Assembly: GCF_003201775.1 (NCBI RefSeq)
Contig: NZ_QJJZ01000003.1
Span: 62,001 to 126,000 of the forward strand
Source: Arenibacter sp. ARW7G5Y1
GTDB lineage: Bacteria; Bacteroidota; Bacteroidia; Flavobacteriales; Flavobacteriaceae
Length of the DNA: 64,000 nucleotides
Direction of reading: 5' to 3'
Of this stretch, positions 3,379 through 37,157 are shown piece after piece. Under the pieces are notes generated by a model. It was given only the letters and a program-made list of their open reading frames with translations, was not told the origin of the DNA and did no database searches. The stretch's first letter is position 1. Each line of letters begins with the position of its first letter. The translations under genes were made by a program, and so were the position numbers.

Positions 3379-3533
3379 ATTTTCGCGTTTCCCTATGGGT
3401 AGATGCCAAGAATGGCACAGGCTTGCAAGCGATGCCAATAGGATGGACTGCCCACTAATCGCTTTAGAAAATAGGGGAGTGTAAAAGCCGGAGGGGGATA
3501 ACTACTAAAAATAACAATTCAAAATTTAAATTT

Positions 3534-3890
3534 ATGCCACATTTTATAATAGATTGTTCGGAAAGCATCATTTCGTTAAAATCGCCTCAGGAGATTATGC
3601 AAAACGTATATGATGCTGCCGAGTCCACACAGCTTTTTGATCCTGGAGATATAAAGGTAAGGATCAATCCATTTAAGTATTACCAAATTGGGAGCACTAA
3701 GAGTGATTTTGTCCATATTTTTACCAATATTATGGAAGGGAGATCGATACAGCAAAAGGCTGAGTTGTCGAAAACAGTGGTAATGAAATTAAATCAAATG
3801 TTTCCGGGAGTTCCAATTCTATCCATGAACATCCGGGATTTTGAAGAGGCAACCTATTTCAATAAAACGATGATTAAAAAAGATGACTAA
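3534..3890 (+). CDS. 5-carboxymethyl-2-hydroxymuconate delta-isomerase (CHMI/HpaF-like)
   Basis: A 118-residue cytoplasmic protein starting MPHFIIDCSE. Removal of Met leaves the N-terminal proline that serves as the catalytic base in the tautomerase superfamily; the length and the RINPFKYYQIG and IFTNIMEGRS segments fit the CHMI branch (E. coli HpaF is 126 residues). In homoprotocatechuate degradation it isomerises 5-carboxymethyl-2-hydroxymuconate, but no other Hpa gene is in this window, so the physiological substrate is uncertain. Its end overlaps the next gene by 8 bp, showing translational coupling. Confidence 0.8.
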   Translation: MPHFIIDCSESIISLKSPQEIMQNVYDAAESTQLFDPGDIKVRINPFKYYQIGSTKSDFVHIFTNIMEGRSIQQKAELSKTVVMKLNQMFPGVPILSMNIRDFEEATYFNKTMIKKDD

Positions 3891-4176
3891 AGAAGAGAAA
3901 ATAAAAATATTGGATACCAGTTGGGAGTTGCATAGTCTGGTTGAAACTAGTTATATGAACAATCCAGCCAATAAGGATGATAAAGAGTGGTTGGAAAAAC
4001 AGCGGCTGCTACTCGCCGATATGGCCCTTCATTTATTACAAACATCTGTTGGCCCAGGCGAAATAAAATTGGATAGATTAGGCGATAATATTCATGCCAT
4101 ATTAACTATAGCTGATCGGTTTTTGCCTAAGGCCGATCTTAAAAAGGCAACCGAAAAATTGTACGAAAACTTATAA
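3883..4176 (+). CDS. Conserved small protein of unknown function
   Basis: A 97-residue, probably all-helical soluble protein with no signal peptide and no motif I recognise. It is rich in charged residues at both ends (MTKEEKIKILD; LKKATEKLYENL). The start ATG overlaps the CHMI gene by 8 bp, and the next gene follows after 4 bp, so it is a genuine member of the four-gene operon rather than a chance frame. No function is proposed. Confidence 0.7.
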   Translation: MTKEEKIKILDTSWELHSLVETSYMNNPANKDDKEWLEKQRLLLADMALHLLQTSVGPGEIKLDRLGDNIHAILTIADRFLPKADLKKATEKLYENL

Positions 4177-4180
4177 GCAC

Positions 4181-4579
4181 ATGAAAAGATCAATAATCAC
4201 ATTCAGCATCCTTCTTTATGCCATTGTGGTACCTTTTTTGGAAATCAATGCAACCCATGTTTTTAATCCGGATTGGACTCCCCATGCAAAAATTCATGAG
4301 GTATGGCAGTTAATTACCAATTCGAGTATAGGGGCGCTATGCATATGGTTGGTTTGGGTAAAGAATGAAACCATGATCAGTGGCATATTAAGTTTATTGG
4401 TAACTGGCGGCTTCTTATTGGCTTATGTTTTACAGGAATCCTATGGTGGTTCCATGATATTTTTGGACGGAAGTGAAAAAACACTTTTGGGAATCAATAT
4501 AGGAGTCATTGGATTTGGAATGGCGTTTATTGGGTTGTTGTTCAGTTTGATATTTACAAAAAAAAAGGAGAAACATTAA
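4181..4579 (+). CDS. Small multi-pass membrane protein (possibly DUF6640)
   Basis: A 132-residue protein with four hydrophobic segments, about residues 3-22, 45-62, 65-85 and 103-126. The soluble stretch after the first helix reads THVFNPDWTPHAKIHEVW; a histidine-rich motif of this kind is what I remember from the DUF6640 family, but the link is tentative. It lies 4 bp after the preceding gene and 16 bp before the GNAT gene, inside the same operon. Function unknown. Confidence 0.65.
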   Translation: MKRSIITFSILLYAIVVPFLEINATHVFNPDWTPHAKIHEVWQLITNSSIGALCIWLVWVKNETMISGILSLLVTGGFLLAYVLQESYGGSMIFLDGSEKTLLGINIGVIGFGMAFIGLLFSLIFTKKKEKH

Positions 4580-4595
4580 GGGAGATTTTAAGGAT

Positions 4596-5048
4596 ATGAT
4601 ATTCAGAAAAGCAACAAAAAAGGACGTTTTGGCCATTGTAGAAATGATTGCCGATGATGAGTTGGGAAAAACAAGGGAGAATTTTCAAATACCCTTGCCC
4701 AAAGAATATTACACGGCCTTTGAAAATATAATGGGCGATGAAAACCAGGAGCTTATGGTTGTTGTAAATGAAGTGGGGGAGGTGATAGGTACCTTGCAAT
4801 TGTCCTTTATCCAATACCTCACCTATCGCGGAGGTGTAAGAGCCCAGATTGAAGCGGTAAGAATAAGAAGGGATCAACGGGGAAGGGGCTTAGGTACTAC
4901 AATGTTTGAATGGGCTATAAAGAGAGCCAAGGAAAGAAATGCCCATGTACTTCAATTGACCACGGACAAGAAACGGCTACAGGCCATAGCCTTTTATTCA
5001 AAACTTGGGTTTAGGGACAGCCATGAGGGGATGAAGATACATTTTTGA
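4596..5048 (+). CDS. GNAT-family N-acetyltransferase
   Basis: A 150-residue acetyl-CoA-dependent acetyltransferase. It begins IFRKATKKDVLAIVEM, has the beta-4 strand IEAVRIRRDQRGRGLGTTMFEWA holding the acetyl-CoA pyrophosphate loop (RGRGLG, around residues 94-99), and ends with the typical AIAFYSKLGFRDSHEGMKIHF. The substrate cannot be read from sequence. It is last in the run that starts at 3534. Confidence 0.88.
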   Translation: MIFRKATKKDVLAIVEMIADDELGKTRENFQIPLPKEYYTAFENIMGDENQELMVVVNEVGEVIGTLQLSFIQYLTYRGGVRAQIEAVRIRRDQRGRGLGTTMFEWAIKRAKERNAHVLQLTTDKKRLQAIAFYSKLGFRDSHEGMKIHF

Positions 5049-5200
5049 TTGGATAATTTCTAGCGAAGCTCATAAGGGAAGGGAAGAAGGGAGGTAGGGA
5101 ACCAGACTTTATTTTTATTATTATATTACCCACTATATCCGTTTCCTACCCATAAAACAACAGGAAAAACATATCTTAGAGCTAACAAAACAATTCTGCC

Positions 5201-7228
5201 ATGAAAACACTGTTTTATGCCTCTTTGATTTTTTGGATGTGTATTTCCTGTAAAAATGAACCTTCCAATAAGAACGATCTTTTAACCGATAATAAGACCG
5301 TTGTCTTTGACGGAATTACAGATTCCATAAGACCAGGGGATGACTTCTTTAATCATGTCAATAAAAAATGGATGGACACAGCGGTTATTGCGGAGGATCA
5401 GGTTGGGGTTGGGTCCTATCGATTTTTGAATATTCCCCAACAAGAACTGCTCAGGAATATTCTGCAGGAAGTATCCCAACAAGAACATACCAAAGGGAGT
5501 ATAGAACAAATGGTGGGCGATTTTTATGCCTCTGGAATGGATACCCTTAGTATTGACGCCAGAGGAATTTCGCCTATACAACCCATAATGGATAAAATAG
5601 AGGCCATAAAGGATATTCCGGGTATGATGGACTTTGTAGCTACCCAGATCAAGTCCGGGGATTATTCCATGGTGGCGCCCTATGTTTCCCCTGATCAGGA
5701 GAATAGTTCCCTTAATATTCTACATGTTGCCCAGACCGGATTGGGCATGCCGGACCGGGATTATTATTTTCTGGAAGATGCTTCGGTAGAAGCTGTTCAG
5801 GAGGCCTATAAAACATATCTGACCTCACTTTTTAAGTTGGTAGGGGAGAAGGATGCCGAAGCCCGGGCAGCTATTGTCTATGATTTGGAAAAACAATTGG
5901 CCCAATCGCACAAGACGCGTACAGAGCGGAGGGTCATTAAAGAGAACTATCACAAAATGGCCGTTGACGAACTGGATCAAAAACAGCCCAATTTGGGTTG
6001 GAAGACGCTATTCTCAATTTTGGGTGCGGAGATCGACTCTTTGAATATCTCCCAACCAAAATATTATGACACTTTGAATAAACTGCTTACCAAGGTGCCA
6101 ATGGACCATTGGAGAACGTACCTAAAAGCACATTCCTTGGATTCACACGCCAATATATTGAGTACACCCTTTAGGGATGCCGCATTTGAATATAGCAAAG
6201 CATTGTCGGGACAGGCGCAACAACAACCCAGGGCCAAGCAGATGGTACGCCGGGTAGATGATCAAATAGGCTTTGCCCTAGGACAATTATATGTAAAGCG
6301 TTACTTTAAGGAAGAGGCTAAAAAACGGGCCCTGGATCTGGTAAATAATTTTCAGGAAGTATTGGAGAAGCGTATCGATGCCTTGGATTGGATGGGCGAT
6401 AGTACCAAGCTAAAAGCCAAGGAAAAACTTTATGCCATCAACAAAAAAATAGGCTATCCTGATGTATGGAGAACTTATGACGTGGTTATAGAGCGTGATA
6501 AGTTCTTTGAAAATGTGGTGGCCTTGCAACAAGATGACTATCATTACGAGCTAAAACAACTTAATAAGGCTCCCAACAGGGACGAGTGGCATACCACCCC
6601 CTCCACGGTAACGGCCTATTACAACCCATCGTTGAACGAAATTGTGTTTCCCGCCGGTATCCTCCAAGCCCCTTATTTTGATCTATATGCCGACGATGCT
6701 GTTAATTACGGTGGTATTGGAATGGTGATAGGTCACGAGTTTACGCATGCCTTTGACGATCAAGGGGCACAATATGACAAGGATGGCAATGTTGCCAATT
6801 GGTGGACCGAGGACGATTATACCAAGTTCAAGGCCAAAACTCAAAAGATCAGTGACCTTTATGCTGGCTTCACGGTTTTGGACAGTATCCATTTGAAGGG
6901 CGACTTAACGGTGGGTGAAAACGCGGCCGATAACGCAGGGATTGCCATTGCCTATGATGCGTTTAAGCTAACCCAACAGGGACAGGATTCCACCAAAATA
7001 GGAGGTTACACTCCAGACCAACGTTTTTTTCTTTCCATAGCCAATATATGGCGGGTAAAAATGCGCGAGGAATTCTTGCGCAATTATGTAATGAACGATC
7101 CGCACTCGCCACCTATCTGGCGTGTAAATGGCCCATTAATGAACTTTACACCGTTTTATGAGGCTTTTGATGTTAGGCCCGGGGATCGGAATTACAGACC
7201 TGAAGCTGAGCGGATCAAGATATGGTAA
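5201..7228 (+). CDS. M13-family zinc metallopeptidase lipoprotein (neprilysin/PepO-like)
   Basis: A 675-residue secreted endopeptidase. The N-terminus MKTLFYASLIFWMCISCKN is a lipoprotein signal with the modified Cys at residue 17, so it is anchored to a membrane facing the periplasm or the surface. The zinc site is complete: HEFTH at residues 512-516 (two His ligands and the catalytic Glu) and ENAAD starting at 573 (third ligand). NAYYNP-like TAYYNPSLNEIVFPAGIL precedes it, as in M13 enzymes, and the protein ends in the family-typical ...RPEAERIKIW. M13 enzymes cut oligopeptides on the amino side of hydrophobic residues. It stands alone, with the broken sigma gene convergent downstream. Confidence 0.93.
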   Translation: MKTLFYASLIFWMCISCKNEPSNKNDLLTDNKTVVFDGITDSIRPGDDFFNHVNKKWMDTAVIAEDQVGVGSYRFLNIPQQELLRNILQEVSQQEHTKGSIEQMVGDFYASGMDTLSIDARGISPIQPIMDKIEAIKDIPGMMDFVATQIKSGDYSMVAPYVSPDQENSSLNILHVAQTGLGMPDRDYYFLEDASVEAVQEAYKTYLTSLFKLVGEKDAEARAAIVYDLEKQLAQSHKTRTERRVIKENYHKMAVDELDQKQPNLGWKTLFSILGAEIDSLNISQPKYYDTLNKLLTKVPMDHWRTYLKAHSLDSHANILSTPFRDAAFEYSKALSGQAQQQPRAKQMVRRVDDQIGFALGQLYVKRYFKEEAKKRALDLVNNFQEVLEKRIDALDWMGDSTKLKAKEKLYAINKKIGYPDVWRTYDVVIERDKFFENVVALQQDDYHYELKQLNKAPNRDEWHTTPSTVTAYYNPSLNEIVFPAGILQAPYFDLYADDAVNYGGIGMVIGHEFTHAFDDQGAQYDKDGNVANWWTEDDYTKFKAKTQKISDLYAGFTVLDSIHLKGDLTVGENAADNAGIAIAYDAFKLTQQGQDSTKIGGYTPDQRFFLSIANIWRVKMREEFLRNYVMNDPHSPPIWRVNGPLMNFTPFYEAFDVRPGDRNYRPEAERIKIW

Positions 7229-26961: not shown

Positions 26962-27008
26962 CTGTTATTGGCACTATGGTATTGAGCTAATCTCAAAAAT
27001 TGTTATTT

Positions 27009-28946
27009 ATGGCACAGGGGTGGATTCGGGCATATAGTGATGAGTATCGCTTTTTTAAGGATAAAACATATAGTCGCAAGGACAAATCATTCTTTAGAAA
27101 AGATTTTACTACCTCCTTTCATTTAACCGCAAATGAAAACGCAGCAGTTCTCAAAACATTACATTGGGGGGATGAACTCATTCTCCCGGATGGAATAGGG
27201 TCGGACGATTGGACGAGAGGTATTGTGGATGGACAAGAAGGATTTCTCAAACGATGGCATGTAGTGGAAATAGGCTATTTGGCCAAAGATGTCGATGATA
27301 ATAAAACACCCTACACTTCTAGACTCCAGTTATCGGATAACGAATACCGCAAAGATTTGCTTTGGGGAGATTTAATCCAGATCACCAAAAGGGAAAACGA
27401 TCTATGTAGTGTAAGGGCTAGAGGATGGTTTGGAAAGTTAAGTTCACATCTTATTGGCGAAACAGCACTTTTAAATATAAATTTTATTGACGTAGGTCAG
27501 GGTGACGGTGTACTTATTCGTTTTCCGGAAGGAAGACATATGCTCCTCGATGGAGGATTGCCCAGGGCGAATCAGCAAACAGGTAAAAATGGAGCGGATT
27601 TTGTAGACTGGAAATTCTTTTTTGATTATGGTCATTATAAAATTCAACTAGACAGTATGATGGCTTCCCATTGTGATTCCGACCATTACGGCGGACTATG
27701 GGATTTAGTGAAAAAAGACCCGGAAACTGATTTGGAATTGGATTGCATCGATTTAAAAATTGGTGAATTCCACCATGCCGGATTATCTACCTGGGTAGAC
27801 AAGGGTGATACTCATAAAGACGGTCTTGGACCCAAAAAAAGCAGTCATTTCACCCGTCTCTTAAATGATAGGCAAGATGCCATTTCGTGCCTGGATCCAG
27901 ATAATCAGGATACCTTGAGTGGCCATTGGAAATCATTCTTAAAAGATATTATCGAGGAACTTCCTGAAACTACCTTCAATAGGGTAGGGGTAACCTCTGA
28001 AAGTTTAAAGGCAGGACAGGATTTACCGGAAATATGGCCAAATACGTCCGATTGTAAGATCAAAGTATTGGCTCCGGTGACCAAAAATGTAGACGGTCAG
28101 CCCGCTTTAAAGGACCTTGGCAACTCGGGGGTCAATAAAAATGGCCATAGCATTTGTCTGAGACTCAATTACCACAATGCCCAGATATTGCTGACAGGTG
28201 ATTTAAACAAAGCGAGTATGGACTTTATATCGGAAGCGTATGGAGATCGAATATCCAGTTTCAACTGCGATGTCGCCAAAGCTTGTCATCATGGCAGCCA
28301 TGATATTTCCTATAAATTCCTACAACATATAAATGCTGGAGCTACCATAATCTCCAGTGGGGACGCTGAAGGTTACGCCCATCCAAGACCAGAGGTCGTG
28401 GCGGCCAGCGCAGTCACCGGACATGTGGATATTGACCCGGTAAAGGACAGATTGGTAACCCCCTTGGTATATATGACAGAGATAGAGCGCTCAGTTTCAC
28501 TAGGAAAGGTCACACATATAAAGATGCGGAACTTTCATGATGGAAATGGTAATGTTAACGATAAGGCCCTGTTGGCACTAAATAAGGCAGAAATCAGCAA
28601 AGCCTCCTATCTCAGTACGGATGAAAAGGAAGCGCTTAATGCCATACAGGATTTAAACGAAAAAAAAGCACACAGAGAGGCGTTGGAGGAGCGCGAAAAG
28701 ACGCTATTGGAAACTATGGAATTGGAATCGAGACAGTTTGAAACCAGGAGCGATTTTCATTTTAAAACCGTACACCAACTGTTCACGATTTCCTATGCCA
28801 CAAAACCACTGGAACGCTCCCGTATTTTGACCAAAAACCATTATGGCCTGGTCAATGTACGTACCGATGGTGAAACCATCATGTGTGCCACTATGGAAGA
28901 AGAAGGTGCAGGATGGACCATACATACGTTTCCGGCAAGATTTTGA
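27009..28946 (+). CDS. ComEC-like metallo-beta-lactamase-fold protein with N-terminal SH3-like modules
   Basis: A 645-residue cytoplasmic protein. Residues 1-140 form two SH3-like modules (VLKTLHWGDELILPDG..., DLLWGDLIQITKRENDLCSVRARGW). The MBL domain begins LNINFIDVGQGDGVLIRFPEG and carries HCDSDH (221-226), ILLTGDLN and ACHHGSHD (His427/428), the ComEC/Rec2-type metal site. A charged coiled coil (residues ~530-575) and a C-terminal domain follow. Standalone ComEC-like MBL proteins are often nucleases or phosphodiesterases and occur in conflict systems. A TTG at 27000 could add three residues; ATG 27009 is chosen. It shares upstream element U with the following gene. Confidence 0.8.
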   Translation: MAQGWIRAYSDEYRFFKDKTYSRKDKSFFRKDFTTSFHLTANENAAVLKTLHWGDELILPDGIGSDDWTRGIVDGQEGFLKRWHVVEIGYLAKDVDDNKTPYTSRLQLSDNEYRKDLLWGDLIQITKRENDLCSVRARGWFGKLSSHLIGETALLNINFIDVGQGDGVLIRFPEGRHMLLDGGLPRANQQTGKNGADFVDWKFFFDYGHYKIQLDSMMASHCDSDHYGGLWDLVKKDPETDLELDCIDLKIGEFHHAGLSTWVDKGDTHKDGLGPKKSSHFTRLLNDRQDAISCLDPDNQDTLSGHWKSFLKDIIEELPETTFNRVGVTSESLKAGQDLPEIWPNTSDCKIKVLAPVTKNVDGQPALKDLGNSGVNKNGHSICLRLNYHNAQILLTGDLNKASMDFISEAYGDRISSFNCDVAKACHHGSHDISYKFLQHINAGATIISSGDAEGYAHPRPEVVAASAVTGHVDIDPVKDRLVTPLVYMTEIERSVSLGKVTHIKMRNFHDGNGNVNDKALLALNKAEISKASYLSTDEKEALNAIQDLNEKKAHREALEEREKTLLETMELESRQFETRSDFHFKTVHQLFTISYATKPLERSRILTKNHYGLVNVRTDGETIMCATMEEEGAGWTIHTFPARF

Positions 28947-30133: not shown

Positions 30134-30394
30134 CTAAATTGAAATATTAATTATTGAATTTTTTGCTAGGATTATAGGTCAATAACAGTATGAATATTGA
30201 AGCAATCAAGCCTTACCTAAAGACCATTAGCTTTACAATTAACAACTTGTAAAACTAACGGCTAATTTGCAAATGCCTGTCTATAGGTAATAAATAGGTA
30301 ATACAGTTGTGTAAAATTGTGTCTGGAGACATTCCCAACAATAAATTATACTTGTATATAAGACTTTTTACTTAATTCAAATCTAGTGCACCAA

Positions 30395-32890
30395 ATGACA
30401 CAACAGGACCAACAAGAGACAAAAAACAATAAAAATAGAGGAGACCACTATCAAAAGATAAAATTTTCCTCATGGCTTCGCCTATTGTTGCAGGCCGTTT
30501 TGAGACATGGATTTGCACTTGTATTTGTGCTCATACTTCTTGTTATTTTCAGAATGCCACATCTTAGTGACCTAACGGTGGTCATCATACAGCTTGAAAA
30601 TGGTAATGATTTTGTGGTGATGTTCTTTTTCTATGCCTCCATATTGGTGATGGCCCTGTTAATCGGTTATGGTAACCTGGTCAAAATAGATTCAGTTGAA
30701 GAGCGTTCACAGCACATAGTGGATGCTAGTTTAGACTCGAAAAAAGAAAAACAAACCAAATTGCTAAATAAGGTTACCCAAGCCATTAACCTTAAAGATT
30801 CAAAGGAAAAAAGGCTCGAGGAACAAAAAAATCAGACAGAATCTTTAGCTGTTGATGGAACTGAACGAAACTATGAGGAGACTGAATATCCTGAAGAATA
30901 CGTAAATAGGATTTATCCAAAAATGCTGGCGGTATTTATGATTTTGGGAATTACATTTACTGTTGAAAATACCTATTTCCAATTGTTCGGAACTCTTATA
31001 AGTTTCAAGTATTTCTTTTTCTTGTTAACAGTGTTTCTTATCGCACTTACCCATCCTCGATTTGCAACGTTCTTAAAGGGTATTTTAAAATGGAAATCAC
31101 GTAACGGATGGTTACCCTTAATAGTTTTGGTAGTATCGGTAGGAATAATAATAATTCTGGGGATTTTCAACACCGGAGGCACTAAATCGGATATTGCCGG
31201 TCTATTTTGGTCTATGATGTGTTTAAGTATTATATTCTTTTTCTTAAGTATTTCCTACAATAAGAGAGTCCTTTGGTTTAAGGAAAAAATAGCCATGCCA
31301 TTTGCCTATATATATACCATAGCACTGGTAGTCATTTATATAGTGATGTTATTTGATCCAGAACTCAATGATCTCAAGTACTTAACTCCTATGGTTATAA
31401 TAATGATCTGTATTATTGGCCTCTACACTATGTTTCTTGGGCTGAATTATTTAGGCAAATACACAAATTGGCCTATTTTGACAATAGTATTTAGCGCAGC
31501 TATCTTAGCAACTGTTTTAGTTGCTAAAAGTGACTGTTTCAAGCACTATGAGGTAAGTAATGTGCATGCAGAAAATATTGATCCTGACGAACGTTTAACC
31601 TTGGAAGACTATGTAGATCAATTTATTGGGCAGCGAAGGGAAGCGATATTAGCAGTCAAGAAAAACCAACAGTTTCCGATAATATTGGTTTCAGCCGAGG
31701 GAGGTGGATCAAGAGCGGGGCACTGGGCATTTTTGGTACATAGCTATTTATATGGCTCAAATGAAGACTATTTTAAAAAACACCTGTTTTCTATAACCGG
31801 GGCCTCCGGTGGTAGCGTTGGTAGTAATATGTTCTACGTTCAAGCTTATGCTAATAAAGACAAATACGATCGTGAATTGTTTTTAACTAAAAACAGTAAG
31901 GAAACATCAAGTGAATTACAGGAAAAAGCTAAAAAAAGGTTTAGATACATAGCGAGTGAATTTTATCAAAGCGATTATATCTCTTCGTCGATAGCCGGAC
32001 TCTTAGGAAGGGACATCATAGCAAGTATATTTCATCTGAATTTTTATAGAGATCGTGGTGGGATTACGGAGAGCGAGTGGGAGAAGAAATTCGATTCATT
32101 ATTTGACAGGGGCTTGTTACAAAGGCCTTATCTAGATATTATGCCAAAAAAAGGTGACACCTTTACACCTCCAATTATGGTGACAACGACAACACATGTG
32201 CAAACTGGGCAACTCTACGTGATAAGTCCAGTTAAGTTCAACAATAATAATGAACGCGAATCGGGATTTAATGATTTCTTATCGGAATACGCCAAGAAAA
32301 ATAAGAGTTCTCAAATGATAAAACGAAGCAGTGCAATGCTGCTCACGGCAAGATTTCCCTATTTAAGTCCAAATGGAAGAGTGTCCGGTGTGGGACAATT
32401 TGGTGATGGTGGCTACTATGACAATATCGGAGGCACGGTTACAAGGTTTCTTGAAGCAGCTTTGATAAAAGGGTTAAAAAAGGATAGCTTATTAAACGGC
32501 AAATACAAGATAAAGCATCTAATTATAACCAATAATACTACCGCTGATTTTGCAGATTGTCCAACATCCAATCAAAAGAAGAAAGATGAAGTAAATTATT
32601 ATACGCAATTGGTTACGCCCGGACAAATGGCCTTAAATGCCCTATTTGCACATGCAGATGAATTTGTAAATGCGACCATGGATTCTTATCGAATTGAATC
32701 TAAACGTACCTTAATCCCAATAGACCAAAATAAACGGCCAGAGATAATTACTCAAATGTGCGACCCTTTGTTTAGACCACTTATACCATTGGGTCGTTAC
32801 CTAAGTGTAGACGCTGTAAGATCTTTGGAAGAGAGATTAAAAGACCCTATAGAGGTTAGAAAGCAATTGGATAGTATTCTTCTTTATTGA
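30395..32890 (+). CDS. Membrane-anchored patatin-like phospholipase
   Basis: An 831-residue protein. The first ~400 residues hold about eight hydrophobic helices, interrupted by a charged cytoplasmic loop (residues ~95-165). The C-terminal half is a patatin domain: oxyanion hole GGGSR (436-440), nucleophile elbow GASGG with Ser471, and the catalytic Asp671 in DGGYYDN. Patatins cut acyl chains from phospholipids; several act as membrane-destroying effectors in defence systems such as CBASS. Here the enzyme is built into a membrane protein, with no nucleotide cyclase near. ATG 30395 is preferred over GTG 30386. Confidence 0.85.
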   Translation: MTQQDQQETKNNKNRGDHYQKIKFSSWLRLLLQAVLRHGFALVFVLILLVIFRMPHLSDLTVVIIQLENGNDFVVMFFFYASILVMALLIGYGNLVKIDSVEERSQHIVDASLDSKKEKQTKLLNKVTQAINLKDSKEKRLEEQKNQTESLAVDGTERNYEETEYPEEYVNRIYPKMLAVFMILGITFTVENTYFQLFGTLISFKYFFFLLTVFLIALTHPRFATFLKGILKWKSRNGWLPLIVLVVSVGIIIILGIFNTGGTKSDIAGLFWSMMCLSIIFFFLSISYNKRVLWFKEKIAMPFAYIYTIALVVIYIVMLFDPELNDLKYLTPMVIIMICIIGLYTMFLGLNYLGKYTNWPILTIVFSAAILATVLVAKSDCFKHYEVSNVHAENIDPDERLTLEDYVDQFIGQRREAILAVKKNQQFPIILVSAEGGGSRAGHWAFLVHSYLYGSNEDYFKKHLFSITGASGGSVGSNMFYVQAYANKDKYDRELFLTKNSKETSSELQEKAKKRFRYIASEFYQSDYISSSIAGLLGRDIIASIFHLNFYRDRGGITESEWEKKFDSLFDRGLLQRPYLDIMPKKGDTFTPPIMVTTTTHVQTGQLYVISPVKFNNNNERESGFNDFLSEYAKKNKSSQMIKRSSAMLLTARFPYLSPNGRVSGVGQFGDGGYYDNIGGTVTRFLEAALIKGLKKDSLLNGKYKIKHLIITNNTTADFADCPTSNQKKKDEVNYYTQLVTPGQMALNALFAHADEFVNATMDSYRIESKRTLIPIDQNKRPEIITQMCDPLFRPLIPLGRYLSVDAVRSLEERLKDPIEVRKQLDSILLY

Positions 32891-33132
32891 TTTTTTCCTT
32901 TTTAAAATTTTCTTCTCAAAATGTAATGAAACCTCAAAGGAGGTTAGGCCCAGCCAAACTTCATTGGAGGTTCACGAGGTCCTATTTAATAAAATAGAAA
33001 TAACCTGAGTAAACACTTATTAAGTGACCCAACGATAGGAGGGAAGTGACACCGAGGAACGAGGTGCATGAATTCCTATAAATAGAAAATAACTAGCCAT
33101 GAATAAATCGCCGAAAGAGATTAGGCGGAGGC
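32891..33132. other. Spacer with fragments of dispersed repeats
   Basis: Part of a 469-bp gap. Contains CCTC AAAG GAGG and two degenerate runs similar to the ATTCACGAAAT/CCTATAAA framework of 19272. No gene is seen. Confidence 0.45.
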
Positions 33133-33209
33133 CAAATCTTAATCTAGATTCACAAATACCGAAATAAAACAATAGACAAGTAATTTGTAAATGTGTATGG
33201 AATGGGATT
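33133..33209 (+). repeat. R2 direct repeat, right copy
   Basis: 77 bp nearly identical to 22299-22374, same orientation, 10.8 kb apart. It sits 150 bp upstream of the first reverse transcriptase gene and marks the point where the sequence becomes clearly AT-rich. Confidence 0.85.
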
Positions 33210-33231
33210 ATTCTTTCTAATTTCTATTTAG

Positions 33232-33338
33232 TTACGGAAATCCGTAAATAGTTTCTTGTTAAAATTCTGTATATTGCTTGTCATAATTGACAACCAAGAA
33301 AATACTCTTTTTGAATACTATAAAGTTGATTTTATAGT
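33232..33338 (+). promoter_or_regulatory. Three successive palindromes upstream of the RT operon
   Basis: TTACGGA AA TCCGTAA (33232-33247), TTGTCA TAAT TGACAA (33278-33293) and ACTATAAA GTTGAT TTTATAGT (33317-33338) lie between R2 and the start codon at 33360. They could be operators for a repressor or structured leader RNA. They share no sequence with each other. Confidence 0.5.
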
Positions 33339-33359: not shown

Positions 33360-34607
33360 ATGCTAAACCAATCATTTAATGAATCTGAACTTATAAGATT
33401 AATCACTTTTGATGATTATAAAAAGTATGAGGGATTTGGAGAAAGTCGTAGAAAAACATTAGAAACTCTTAACAAGATTTCTAATAAAATAAACTCTGCC
33501 GATTTTATAGTCTCATCTGTAATTAAAATACTGAATGATTCTAATGAGATTTTCAGTCTTTCCAAAGTGGAAGACGATTTCGCCCTAAGAAAGATTAATG
33601 ATTCACTAAAAAGATTTTATAAGGTTAAACAAGCTGATAGAAACCTGATAGTAAATCAAATTATAATCTTATTGCAAGAGGCAGTTCCAATGTCTATTAT
33701 AAAATTAGACTTAAAAAAATTCTATGAAAGTATTGATAGAAAATGGATTATTGATAAACTTAGAGATGATGCTTTACTTTCCGCCAGGGCAATTAATGTT
33801 CTTGAAGACTTTTTTGAATTAAGTGAGTTTACTTCTTTTACAGGTTTACCTAGAGGAATAGGAATAAGTGCTACTTTATCGGAGCTTTATCTAAGAGATT
33901 TTGACAGAAAGGTTAATCGACTTGATAGTGTATATTATTATGCAAGGTATGTTGATGATATTATATTGTTCACAACAAAAGCTCCGGAAGAAATTTTAAA
34001 AGAAATAAAGGAAAAGAAATTATTACGAGAACCATTGCTGTTTAATGATAAGAAAACAAAAAAATATGAAGTAAATAATTACGATAAGGCTTCTGAAAAG
34101 GAATTGAATTTTGAATATTTAGGTTATAAATTTTTATTTACTGACTGTTGCAAGAAAGCAAAAAATGAGTTTACGGATAAAAAAATAGAAGTATCTATTG
34201 CTCAATCTAAGGTTAATAAATATAAAACTAGAATTGTTCGTTCATTCTTAGATTATTTAAAAAATGGTGATTTTTCTCTTTTAGAAGACAGAATGAAATT
34301 CTTAACGGGTAATTACCCTATAAAAAGAAATACAAGTGAGGGAACTATTTTATATGCAGGGTTATACTATAATTATCCCTTTATTAATGATAAAAAAACA
34401 TTAGAAGAGCTAACCATTTTTCTGCGAAAAATTATCAATTCAAAAAATAAAAGCTTTGGAACCAAGATAAATTCATCTTTGAGTAATAGTCAAAAAGGAT
34501 TACTGTCAAAATATAGTTTTTTGTCAGGATGGAATAATAGGAAAATTAATGCTGATTTTAACCCAGAAAGAGTAAAATTAATAAAGCAATGTTGGCATAA
34601 TGACTAG
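33360..34607 (+). CDS. drt3a: Antiviral reverse transcriptase Drt3a (DRT type 3)
   Basis: A 415-residue reverse transcriptase with full catalytic motifs: motif A IIKLDLKKFYESID (Asp117), motif B TGLPRGIGISATLSELYL and motif C YYARYVDDIILF (YVDD 197-200), then YLGYKF of the thumb-side region. There is no maturase, group II intron or retron context. Two RT genes overlapping head to tail, one of ~415 and one of ~660 residues, are the arrangement I know as DRT3 (UG3 plus UG8), a phage-defence system. In DRT3 this RT is reported to copy an ACACAC template of a partner RNA into poly(GT) DNA. AT-rich codon use contrasts with the chromosome at either side. Confidence 0.85.
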   Translation: MLNQSFNESELIRLITFDDYKKYEGFGESRRKTLETLNKISNKINSADFIVSSVIKILNDSNEIFSLSKVEDDFALRKINDSLKRFYKVKQADRNLIVNQIIILLQEAVPMSIIKLDLKKFYESIDRKWIIDKLRDDALLSARAINVLEDFFELSEFTSFTGLPRGIGISATLSELYLRDFDRKVNRLDSVYYYARYVDDIILFTTKAPEEILKEIKEKKLLREPLLFNDKKTKKYEVNNYDKASEKELNFEYLGYKFLFTDCCKKAKNEFTDKKIEVSIAQSKVNKYKTRIVRSFLDYLKNGDFSLLEDRMKFLTGNYPIKRNTSEGTILYAGLYYNYPFINDKKTLEELTIFLRKIINSKNKSFGTKINSSLSNSQKGLLSKYSFLSGWNNRKINADFNPERVKLIKQCWHND

Positions 34608-36585
34608 AATTCGCATTAAAAAATTTGATAAAAGCAGAATACTTTTAACCGAAGTGCTTCCATACGAAGTACCTATTCCTTTTACAAACGTTGGTCTGTA
34701 TAGATTCTCGAAAAGACCAAAATCTGAAAGAGTGCCAGGCTTAGTAACCGAAATACTTGGCAACAGAAGTCCAATGAGTTTATTGCCTTATAATTATCAA
34801 ATAATCAAAAAATTGGATAGTTACAGAACTCTGACCATAATGCACCCACAAGTTCAATTAAAATTTGTTGACTTTTATTCGAAGTATGATTCTTTGATAA
34901 TAAGTCTATGCTCTAAAAGCAGAGTATCCATTAGATATCCATCAAAAGTGGCAAGTCATTTTTATGTAAAGAACCCACAAATAATAAAGAGAAAGTTAAG
35001 AGATTCGGGTGTAGAGGTAGAAAAGCAATCCTATGAATTAGATGTGGCTCACTCAAGTTCATATTTTACATATAAAAGTTATGATTTTCTTTACAAATTC
35101 TATGATTCTTATAAATTTCATCGTTTTGAAAAAAAATTTAAAAAGCTTTTGCGATTTGATGTAGCCAAGTGTTTTCCTAGCATTTATTCACATTCGATAG
35201 CTTGGGCCGTTAAAGGTAAAGAATTTGCAAAAAAAAATGTTGCAACTAGTTCATTTGAAAATAAATTTGATAAGCTTATGCAATGGTCAAATTATAATGA
35301 GACTAATGGAATTATTATTGGCCCAGAAACCTCAAGAATTTTTGCCGAAATAATTCTGCAAAGAATCGAGCAAAATGTAATAACCAAATTAAATGATGTC
35401 AAAATTAGAATAGATAGAGATTATGCTATTTGTAGATATGTCGATGACTATTTTGTTTTCTCGAATGATTTTAAGTTAGCCAATAAAATTAAAGCAGCTT
35501 TTGTCAAAGAGTTAGAATATTATAAATTATCAATTAATGATTCTAAAACGGAAAAGATAAAGGTTCCGTTTATTACAGGAATAACAATTGCAAGAATTGA
35601 ATTAGAAAGACGCTTAAATGAGTTCTTAAATTCATTTATGGATGAAGTAGAAACCAAAGATGAAGATGGGAATAGTAGAAAAGAAGTAGTTTTAAAAACC
35701 TTAAATAGACCATTCGGAATATCAAATAATCTAATAAGAGATTTAAAAAGTATTATCAAGAAGAACAATGTAGATTATGAAGATGTAACGGGAATGACAG
35801 TTTCGATAATTCGAAATAAGCTGGTTAAAATTCTTGAAAACGAATATCTACTTGAGCAAGAAGCAGATTATTTAAAAGATATTGGAAATCCAATTCTGAT
35901 AATTCTTGACGTATTATTTTTTCTTATTTCGATGGATAGTCGACCCAGAGCAACGGTTTTACTAACTCAAATTAACGTAGTAATTACTCGCTTTCTAAAG
36001 TATAGTAAAATAGATGCTGAACAGAGCAGATTAATCTCTAAGAAAATTTTTGATGGTTTAAGAGATACTTTGGATATATTAAGTAGAGATTCTAAAACAC
36101 ACTTAGAATCATTAAACTTATTTGTATCGCTTGTAAACCTAAATAAGGTTCATCCAATAAATAAGGTTAAGTTCATTGAAGAAATTTTTAAAGATGAGGA
36201 GGATTTAGTGAATTTAGATTATTTTCAAATCATTGTTTTGTTCTATTTTTTTGAAAACTCAAATGAGTGTGTTAGTCAAAAAAATGTTTTAATTAAATCA
36301 ACTATAAATAAGTTTTCGAATATGAATGAACCAATGTCGAAAGCAGAATTTGTTTACTTATTTTTTGATTTTATTGCTTGTCCTTATATAGAAGTATCTG
36401 ATAAAAATCAGATGTTAGATATTGTTTATAAATCAGTTTATAAAACAAACCCCAGTGTTACAAGGCGAGGAACAATAAGAAACTATATTTCAAAGAATTT
36501 TTGGTTTATGGACTGGAGAACAGATGACATAAATCTTGAGTACATTTTAGCAAAAAAAGAATACAATCCGCCTTATTCAGGTTGA
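34600..36585 (+). CDS. drt3b: Antiviral reverse transcriptase Drt3b (DRT type 3)
   Basis: A 661-residue second reverse transcriptase whose start codon overlaps the end of drt3a by 8 bp. Motif A is LLRFDVAKCFPSIYSHSI (Asp187), motif B NGIIIGPETSRIFAEIIL, motif C AICRYVDDYFVFSND (YVDD 280-283). The C-terminal ~300 residues are helical, fitting the alpha-repeat tail of UG8-class enzymes. Both RTs look catalytically intact. From the published DRT3 work as I remember it, Drt3b makes the complementary poly(AC) strand. Downstream lies the candidate partner RNA. Confidence 0.85.
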   Translation: MTRIRIKKFDKSRILLTEVLPYEVPIPFTNVGLYRFSKRPKSERVPGLVTEILGNRSPMSLLPYNYQIIKKLDSYRTLTIMHPQVQLKFVDFYSKYDSLIISLCSKSRVSIRYPSKVASHFYVKNPQIIKRKLRDSGVEVEKQSYELDVAHSSSYFTYKSYDFLYKFYDSYKFHRFEKKFKKLLRFDVAKCFPSIYSHSIAWAVKGKEFAKKNVATSSFENKFDKLMQWSNYNETNGIIIGPETSRIFAEIILQRIEQNVITKLNDVKIRIDRDYAICRYVDDYFVFSNDFKLANKIKAAFVKELEYYKLSINDSKTEKIKVPFITGITIARIELERRLNEFLNSFMDEVETKDEDGNSRKEVVLKTLNRPFGISNNLIRDLKSIIKKNNVDYEDVTGMTVSIIRNKLVKILENEYLLEQEADYLKDIGNPILIILDVLFFLISMDSRPRATVLLTQINVVITRFLKYSKIDAEQSRLISKKIFDGLRDTLDILSRDSKTHLESLNLFVSLVNLNKVHPINKVKFIEEIFKDEEDLVNLDYFQIIVLFYFFENSNECVSQKNVLIKSTINKFSNMNEPMSKAEFVYLFFDFIACPYIEVSDKNQMLDIVYKSVYKTNPSVTRRGTIRNYISKNFWFMDWRTDDINLEYILAKKEYNPPYSG

Positions 36586-36591
36586 TTGTTT

Positions 36592-36720
36592 GAAACTAGT
36601 GGTGCATCGTATAATACGGTTCGCTTAATTGATTAATTAATGCATTTTTTAATCCTGTAGTGAATTGAGCTCATTTTTTGGGTACACACCAAGGTGCGTT
36701 AAGCCACTAGTTTCTTTTTA
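36592..36720 (+). ncRNA. Candidate DRT3 non-coding RNA
   Basis: It begins 7 bp after the drt3b stop. GAAACTAGTGG (36592-36602) pairs perfectly with CCACTAGTTTC (36704-36714), an 11-bp closing stem, followed by TTTTTAATTTTTT like an intrinsic terminator. Inside are TGCAT (36603-36607)/ATGCA (36640-36644) and a hairpin TTGG GTACACA CCAA (36679-36692 region). ACACAC occupies 36684-36689, in or next to that loop. A DRT3 RNA is expected to present ACACAC as template for poly(GT). No protein frame covers the region. Exact ends are inferred from the stem. Confidence 0.7.
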
Positions 36721-36740
36721 ATTTTTTAATTCCTAAATGA

Positions 36741-37157
36741 ATGGATGTAATAAATTTTCTGAAATCTAAATTTAAAAAATCTGACCTAGAATTATTAAAT
36801 AATCCAAATGGGAGGGCAGGGGTTGATTTTTTAGTTGGAGATTGTCAATTATATCTTCAACCTATGAATTTAGATGAAACTCAGCGAAGTATCAAAATAT
36901 TAAAAGAAGATTTAGGAAAATTAAGAAGTGATTTATTTGTCGTTTTAGTATTGGTAATCGATAAAGAACCAAGGGGTTTTTATTTAATTCCATCGACAGA
37001 GTTAGAACAGTCAAATGGAGATATTTTTATTGATAATAATGTAAATTTAATGCCCAGGTTATCAAATTGGGAAATTAAAGTTTCCTCTTATACAATTCCA
37101 AAATTAGCGAGGTATTCATCTGACCATGTAATAGATGAGTTCAAACATCGTCAATAA
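36741..37157 (+). CDS. Small protein downstream of DRT3, unknown
   Basis: A 138-residue soluble protein. It reads NNPNGRAGVDFLVGDCQLYLQPMNL, then ILKEDLGKLRSDLFVVLVLVIDKEP and IKVSSYTIPKLARYSSDHVI. The alternating short strands with VDFLV...LYLQ have a vague PD-(D/E)XK-like order, but the required Lys is absent, so this is not claimed. It starts 20 bp after the RNA candidate's terminator-like tail, on the same strand and with the same AT-rich composition, so it may be part of the system or a neighbouring accessory gene. Confidence 0.6.
   Translation: MDVINFLKSKFKKSDLELLNNPNGRAGVDFLVGDCQLYLQPMNLDETQRSIKILKEDLGKLRSDLFVVLVLVIDKEPRGFYLIPSTELEQSNGDIFIDNNVNLMPRLSNWEIKVSSYTIPKLARYSSDHVIDEFKHRQ

What the first reader, a model, noticed from the sequence alone, without database searches (positions are those of the whole stretch)
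33360..36720. DRT3-type defence reverse transcriptase pair with a candidate template RNA in place
Seen: two overlapping RT genes with intact YVDD sites and, 7 bp after the second, a 123-nt element closed by a perfect 11-bp stem, ending in a T-rich tail, with ACACAC in or next to an internal hairpin loop. Known (from my memory of DRT3 reports): the system uses an RNA with an ACACAC template to make poly(GT), and a second RT to make the opposite strand. Inference: the element is the partner RNA, positioned downstream of both RT genes. A flavobacterial DRT3 with the RNA at this site would be worth describing.
Basis: partly seen in the sequence, partly recalled or inferred. Interest (0 to 1): 0.85.

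Follow-up and report, generated by a model that had tools for sequence, protein, structure and literature searches.

The report
DRT3 defence operon with template RNA

Summary
Two overlapping RT genes (33360-34607, 34600-36585) pass the curated Drt3a and Drt3b cut-offs by wide margins. Six bases after drt3b lies a 123-nt element (36592-36714) closed by a perfect 11-bp stem, with ACACAC (36684-36689) directly 3' of a small hairpin. The same element follows drt3b in all 4 close relatives found (70-79% Drt3b identity), with compensated stems. In 52 of 52 DRT3 loci an alternating A/C run of 6 or more bases lies within 300 nt after drt3b, against 6.2% of control windows. The published dA gate, dC gate and primer residues (E22, R241, Y666) map to E23, R246 and Y659 and are present. 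DRT3 and its mechanism are published for E. coli, so this is a new member of a known kind. Added here: this RNA is specific to one small clade; DRT3 falls into two lineages that differ in template distance and Drt3b size but keep the template; the host has no RecC, so the published RecBCD guard cannot act unchanged; and an 85-nt promoter leader is shared with a Gabija operon and a KAP ATPase locus in other genera. No activity was tested.

The parts
33360..34607 (+). drt3a, RNA-templated (class 2, UG3-type) reverse transcriptase, 415 aa, YVDD at aa 197-200
   Evidence: PADLOC PDLC02175 7.2e-134; NCBIfam NF041747 403.6 bits, cut-off 200; PDB 9z6y_A 6.5e-51
34600..36585 (+). drt3b, protein-primed and protein-templated (class 1, UG8-type) reverse transcriptase, 661 aa, YVDD at aa 280-283; E23, R76, R246, Y659 match EcoDRT3b E22, R71, R241, Y666
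   Evidence: PADLOC PDLC02176 4.8e-216; NCBIfam NF041748 656 bits, cut-off 350; PDB 26cz_A 6.3e-117 with residue alignment; AlphaFold model mean pLDDT 80.7, best folds DRT6, DRT4, UG15, AbiK
36592..36714 (+). template ncRNA, 123 nt, closed by a perfect 11-bp stem (36592-36602 with 36704-36714)
   Evidence: fold z -4.27; 5-locus alignment and covariation; model R1 151 bits in the window, which is one of its 5 training rows
36684..36689 (+). ACACAC template for poly(dTdG), directly 3' of a 5-bp hairpin (36669-36683)
   Evidence: unpaired in MFE; invariant in the 5 window-type RNAs; A/C run in 52 of 52 DRT3 loci
36715..36726 (+). T-rich tail after the closing stem; stem plus tail could end transcription (inference; the terminator scan, which allows loops of 3-8 only, does not list it)
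   Evidence: sequence; scan
33232..33247 (+). palindrome TTACGGAAATCCGTAA upstream of drt3a, candidate operator; the scan also lists it as terminator-like
   Evidence: same place in L013, L014, L015, degenerate in L012; only exact copy in the genome; scan
33191..33275 (+). promoter leader of about 85 nt shared with a Gabija operon (83.5% identity, L209) and a KAP ATPase locus (81.4%, L210) of other genera; holds TTGTTAAAATT..TATATTGC, like a flavobacterial promoter (motif recalled)

Best explanation
An intact DRT3 anti-phage operon, drt3a-drt3b-ncRNA. The RNA downstream of drt3b folds so that a closing stem and a small hairpin present a short ACACAC segment; Drt3a copies it repeatedly into poly(dTdG), slipping back along the repeat. 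Drt3b, primed by Tyr659 and gated by Glu23 (dA) and Arg246 (dC), makes poly(dCdA) without a nucleic-acid template; the strands pair into a repeat duplex whose accumulation stops the infected cell. Shown here: gene identity, gene order, RNA conservation and covariation, template and residue conservation. Inferred from the published E. coli system: transcription of the RNA, the DNA products, and defence. In this host the nuclease that would clear the duplex is most likely an AddAB-like complex, since no RecC was found.
For: Curated family scores for both RTs; alignment to solved DRT3 chains with gate and primer residues present; RNA at the same site with compensated stems in 4 of 4 close relatives; A/C run in 52 of 52 loci, and in 42 of 42 after removing copies at or above 90% identity, against 6.2% of 9415 control windows; R246 in 52 of 52, E or D at position 23 in 48 of the 49 loci with a letter there, Y659 in 51 of 52; published mechanism with the RNA downstream of drt3b (PMC13174585).
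Against: No expression or activity data for this locus. The RNA model built from the 5 window-type RNAs finds no other DRT3 RNA, only 6 weak minus-strand matches at E 0.1-9.4, so kinship of this RNA with the E. coli RNA rests on place, template and layout, not on sequence. Host guard differs: no RecC. For the 16 viral-contig loci the search patterns held GPExSR and LPYE-like motifs, so their R246 and E23 are partly selected for.
Confidence: 0.93

Rival explanations
1. The element is only the operon's transcription terminator or a 3' UTR hairpin, and ACACAC is there by chance; the real RNA lies elsewhere.
For: The closing stem is followed by a T-rich tail.
Against: A 123-nt multi-hairpin element conserved in 4 of 4 close relatives, with changes on both sides in each of the five helices; the sequence around ACACAC is invariant while loops vary; A/C runs follow drt3b in 52 of 52 loci.
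Confidence: 0.03
2. The operon is a genuine DRT3 but makes a different product, because this RNA or Drt3b has drifted from the AC/TG specificity.
For: The RNA model does not recognise the E. coli DRT3 RNAs; Drt3b is 32-36% identical to the E. coli copies fetched.
Against: Template is exactly ACACAC and the four published active-site or priming residues are identical.
Confidence: 0.03
3. A decayed or silent defence locus.
For: Patchy: 2 of 18 genomes of the genus, this one included, hold Drt3b.
Against: Both frames open, catalytic and priming residues intact, stems compensated, promoter leader present.
Confidence: 0.04

Closest known systems
EcoDRT3 (Drt3a + Drt3b + ncRNA): Wang et al. 2026 preprint PMC13174585; Deng et al. 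2026 (not read; known through PMC13174585, PMC13314766 and PMC13213688)
   Same: Gene order, RNA downstream of drt3b, ACACAC in a loop beside a stem-loop, YVDD in both RTs, dA and dC gates, C-terminal priming tyrosine.
   Different: 32-36% identity in Drt3b to the E. coli copies fetched; RNA not linked by the sequence-structure model; host lacks RecC. E. coli loci L032, L034, L036, L037 lie next to an integrase and ogr- and psu-like genes (P4-like is my inference); no integrase was seen among the 19 window ORFs scanned against Pfam.
The other DRT3 lineage, with the template close to drt3b (e.g. L007, L009, L010, L038, L023; L033 and L035 in E. coli)
   Same: Same gene pair and A/C template after drt3b.
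   Different: Run starts a median 41.5 nt after drt3b rather than 123; run of 8-9 nt in 15 of 22 rows; Drt3b open frame 690-772 codons in 21 of 22 rows, with about 33 extra residues between window aa 41 and 81.
DRT9 and DRT10 RT-ncRNA systems
   Same: RNA-templated repeat DNA from a short looped template (PMC13174585).
   Different: DRT9 makes poly-dA; no second, protein-templated RT partner (recalled). Not tested here.

Membership tests
DRT3 antiviral system | Drt3a (UG3-type) reverse transcriptase | tested here: met
   403.6 bits against cut-off 200, NF041747; PADLOC 7.2e-134
DRT3 antiviral system | Drt3b (UG8-type) reverse transcriptase directly downstream | tested here: met
   656 bits against cut-off 350, NF041748; 8-nt gene overlap
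DRT3 antiviral system | Intact catalytic YVDD in both RTs | tested here: met
   Sequence; Drt3b alignment
DRT3 antiviral system | Structured ncRNA downstream of drt3b with ACACAC in a loop | tested here: met
   layout agrees with PMC13174585. Expression not tested
DRT3 antiviral system | Drt3b dA gate, dC gate and priming Tyr (E22, R241, Y666) | tested here: met
   E23, R246, Y659 by alignment to 26cz and 52-locus alignment
DRT3 antiviral system | ncRNA is transcribed and bound by the RTs | not testable with these tools
   Needs RNA sequencing or RIP-seq
DRT3 antiviral system | Makes poly(dTdG) and poly(dCdA), protects against phage | not testable with these tools
   Needs expression and phage assays
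DRT3 with RecBCD-guarded activation as in E. coli | RecBCD present in host | tested here: not met
   No RecC family PF04257 (among 14 control genomes it was found in E. coli only); AddA- and AddB-like genes instead, scoring under the curated cut-offs
DRT3 as placed in the UG-wide RT phylogeny | Clusters with UG3 and UG8 in an RT tree | not tested
   Only family scores and a tree of Drt3b rows alone
Group II intron RT | Passes the group II maturase model | tested here: not met
   TIGR04416 56.1 and 33.8 bits against cut-off 300

The most novel reading that the evidence does not exclude
The DRT3 operon is one interchangeable cargo behind a shared defence promoter of this bacterial family. An 85-nt leader, with the palindrome TTACGG-N4-CCGTAA and a promoter right after it, stands before DRT3 here, before gajA-gajB in one genome and about 500 nt before a KAP-family ATPase gene in another, with a sharp left edge about 41 nt before the palindrome; the palindrome alone also stands before cas9-cas1 in a congener. 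If real, a common regulator reads this site and couples DRT3, Gabija and other systems, or the leader is the entry point of cassette exchange.
Probability: 0.33. Interest if true: 0.6.

Novelty: new member of a known kind. Interest (0 to 1): 0.42.

Why it matters
In the papers seen, the mechanism, in which protein side chains and an RNA independently specify complementary DNA strands, was worked out in E. coli. This locus extends it to a distant clade and shows that both halves of the code stay at AC/TG over 52 loci while the RNA around the template is rebuilt. If only double-strandedness mattered, the two templates could drift together; that none of the 52 did suggests the particular repeat matters (inference). 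A host without RecC makes the proposed RecBCD guard model testable.

Tried and rejected
Rfam scan of the window: no family at gathering score. Viral-contig scan with the single Drt3b protein: none; with alignment A1: 16 loci. Plasmid and phage tblastn: 204 and 9 records; of the plasmid list H1-H8 were opened; the phage hits cover at most 61% of Drt3b and were not opened. GGTGCAYCGTAYAATAC gave 4 stretches, none of which the RNA model matches at E up to 10. Orphan copies of the window-type RNA: searched in 299 genomes of the family, found only in the own genome, with stricter filters that lose weak matches. A MAFFT alignment of 9 short-distance RNAs gave no consensus structure; a direct search for a closing helix beat shuffles (fraction below 0.05) in 9 of 21 loci only, so that fold is only partly supported. 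Generic fold check over 52 loci: template at least 80% unpaired, enclosed by at least 4 pairs and hairpin within 5 nt in 38% against 8.7% of 1040 shuffles: a trend, not a rule. Sigma-70-type promoter scan: 29 sites against 23.9 expected, uninformative; the same scan lists the 33232 palindrome as terminator-like.

Palindrome as a genus-wide regulon site: not supported. Exact copies number 11 sites in 9 of 18 congeneric genomes (this one included), fewer than the 60 of the backwards control; of the 11, six lie inside open frames, three are one integrase/transposase context, one is DRT3 and one precedes cas9. In 397 genomes of the family the palindrome-plus-promoter pattern has 13 matches in 11 genomes against 3 for the backwards control; of the 13 only 3 (DRT3, Gabija, KAP) show the long leader, two more match it weakly (45 and 27 nt), one lies inside an open frame, and several have longer palindromes that look like terminators. 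8 viral stretches with the pattern show no leader; the leader finds nothing in plasmids, its left part nothing in viral contigs. Literature: papers holding DRT3 and Flavobacter, 0; DRT3 and Bacteroid, 0, in an open-licence library that misses most subscription journals.

Rows dropped before counts: L001, L002, L017 (the window itself) and L006 (duplicate of L039) from the 52-locus survey; L025, L054, L055 (truncated or split Drt3b) from the tree and lineage counts; L022 also from the closing-helix test and from the first-lineage means. Drt3b lengths in the survey are stop-to-stop frames, so a few are longer than the annotated genes. At position 659 the 36-row alignment reads L in L022, the 52-row one reads Y.
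Full report
What is there. The window is C3:62001-126000 of an unnamed 5.73-Mb genome in 46 contigs. Two overlapping reverse-transcriptase genes lie at 33360-34607 and 34600-36585, both with YVDD. The first is Drt3a and the second Drt3b by PADLOC (E 7.2e-134 and 4.8e-216) and by NCBIfam equivalogs well above their cut-offs (403.6 vs 200 and 656 vs 350 bits). Both match solved DRT3 chains (9z6y_A 6.5e-51; 26cz_A 6.3e-117). An AlphaFold model of Drt3b (mean pLDDT 80.7; the C-terminal 7 residues below 50) is closest to DRT6, DRT4, UG15 and AbiK; the fold library ends in April 2026 and no DRT3 entry is among the 50 rows shown. The two genes are 27-29% G+C in a 39% window, which fits recent acquisition.

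The RNA. Six bases after the drt3b stop a 123-nt element begins (36592-36714), closed by a perfect 11-bp stem and followed by a T-rich tail. It folds at -39.1 kcal/mol, 0 of 200 shuffles as low. ACACAC (36684-36689) is unpaired and directly follows a 5-bp hairpin (36669-36683). A scan of one genome for each of 84,980 species with Drt3b, which finds close relatives only, returned 5 loci: four Flavobacteriaceae (L012-L015; Winogradskyella twice, Tenacibaculum, Flagellimonas; 70-78% identity) and Enterobacter soli (36%). All four of the former carry the same RNA right behind drt3b. On the 5-row alignment 93.5% of pair cells are standard pairs and 13 pairs change on both sides; no one of 500 shuffles reaches either value, 6 of 500 reach the number of further pair types, and sliding partners by 1-3 columns drops pairing to 35-48%. 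Five rows are few, the structure came from these rows, and helices 3 and 4 break in some rows (87% of cells paired). ACACAC and its neighbours are invariant.

How general. I gathered 52 DRT3 loci (window, L003-L005, L007-L016, L018-L055) from genomes of the same family, order, phylum and genus (10 of 397, 4 of 395, 6 of 395 and 2 of 18 genomes with a match; overlapping samples), the species scan, plasmids, E. coli and viral contigs. In 52 of 52 the 300 nt after drt3b hold an alternating A/C run of at least 6 bases, against 6.2% of 9415 control windows drawn from the same loci; with copies at or above 90% identity removed, 42 of 42. No search used the run as a criterion for these loci. Some runs lie far from the stop or in doubtful loci (L022, L018, L049, L054) and may be chance. 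A Drt3a-like frame was found on the same strand in 49 of 52; it was not seen in L018, L046 and L054, whose stretches are short on that side.

Protein side. From the alignment to 26cz, EcoDRT3b E22, R71, R241 and Y666 (PMC13174585) correspond to window E23, R76, R246 and Y659. Over 52 loci: R246 52; position 23 is E in 46, D in 2 (L029, L049), R in 1 (L018, whose N-terminus does not align there), gap in 3; R76 48, N 1 (L031), gap 3; Y659 51, with one changed C-terminus in L032. The search patterns bias the first two for the 16 viral loci. So the RNA half and the protein half of the code both stay at AC/TG, including in two loci with the E-to-D change.

Two lineages. A tree of 49 Drt3b rows, rooted at the midpoint for drawing only and with several long branches, splits into 22 and 27 rows (98/91). 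In the 22 rows the run starts a median 41.5 nt after drt3b, is 8-9 nt in 15, and the Drt3b open frame is 690-772 codons except L022 (638). In the 27 rows, which hold the window and the E. coli loci L032, L034, L036 and L037, the median start is 123 nt, the run 6-7 nt in 24, and the frame 638-685 codons. Exceptions: L016 starts at 46 and L022 at 123. The longer Drt3b carries about 33 extra residues between window positions 41 and 81, next to the gates (21 against 27 rows). Both lineages occur in the window's own genus (L023). The five window-type loci form one clade (100/100), and their RNA model finds no other DRT3 RNA among 56 sources.

Mechanism. In the published E. coli work (PMC13174585: abstract, results parts 1-2 of 3, escaper section, discussion, two methods sections, legends part 1 of 2 and search passages seen), Drt3a copies ACACAC into poly(dTdG), Drt3b makes poly(dCdA) from its C-terminal tyrosine, and duplex accumulation arrests infected cells unless RecBCD removes it. 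Two reviews were seen in part (PMC13314766 abstract and part of section 4; PMC13213688 part 1 of 2). The window has every sequence feature this needs on the system side. On the host side no RecC was found; AddA- and AddB-like genes lie at C1:228.6-236.6 kb and score below the curated cut-offs of their families. The guard here is therefore an AddAB-like complex or something else. GreA, the other published host factor, was not looked for.

Control region. Upstream of drt3a lies TTACGG-N4-CCGTAA (33232-33247), present at the same place in L013, L014 and L015 and degenerate in L012, just 5' of TTGTTAAAATT..TATATTGC. It is the only exact copy in the genome, but the palindrome is not enriched in the genus, and a scan lists it as terminator-like. 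The surrounding 85 nt are 83.5% identical to the leader of a gajA-gajB (Gabija) operon in G335 and 81.4% to a stretch about 500 nt before a KAP ATPase gene in G250, starting at the same left edge, and 71% to a stretch in three congeners that in the one scanned lies between a tyrosine integrase and a transposase gene. The palindrome alone precedes cas9-cas1 by about 45 nt in a congener (L212). L209 and L210 were found by the palindrome-promoter pattern, so only the 41 nt to its left are independent evidence of common descent.

Verdict. Observation and interpretation both hold; the system is known. That this member and its RNA are not in print rests on two library searches only. Deng et al. 2026, Mestre et al. 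2022 and Gao et al. 2020 were not read. On checking, the odds of the bold reading were lowered from 0.35 to 0.33 because of the control counts and the scan.

Noticed in passing
window 33191-33275: Promoter leader with palindrome TTACGG-N4-CCGTAA shared with Gabija and KAP ATPase loci of other genera of the family (L209, L210).
   Followed up: partly
L212 1425-1440 (congener G212, C33): The same palindrome (TTACGGTTTTCCGTAA) about 45 nt before a cas9-cas1 operon.
   Followed up: partly
window 27000-28946: Metallo-beta-lactamase-like protein with PADLOC matches to LmuA (2.7e-16) and RTasMBL (3e-13), ending 4.4 kb upstream of drt3a.
   Followed up: no
window 30386-32890: 834-aa protein with a patatin-like GASGGS motif (motif recalled), directly upstream of the DRT3 leader; no match at E 1e-20 in the 17 other genomes of the genus searched.
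   Followed up: partly
window 36741-37157: 138-aa ORF right after the RNA, no match in PADLOC, Pfam or NCBIfam.
   Followed up: no
L004, L005, L007-L011, L019-L021, L023, L027, L030, L033, L035, L038, L039, L047, L048, L051, L052: DRT3 lineage with the A/C run close to drt3b, a longer run and a longer Drt3b.
   Followed up: partly
L032 (E. coli CFSAN064035), drt3b 3460-5499: Drt3b with a changed C-terminus that lacks the priming tyrosine; described only.
   Followed up: no
window 32971-33017 with L012 3521-3566; L012 3476-3565 with L210: Further shared blocks upstream of drt3a (77% over 47 nt; 86% over 92 nt), around GAGTAAACAC.
   Followed up: no
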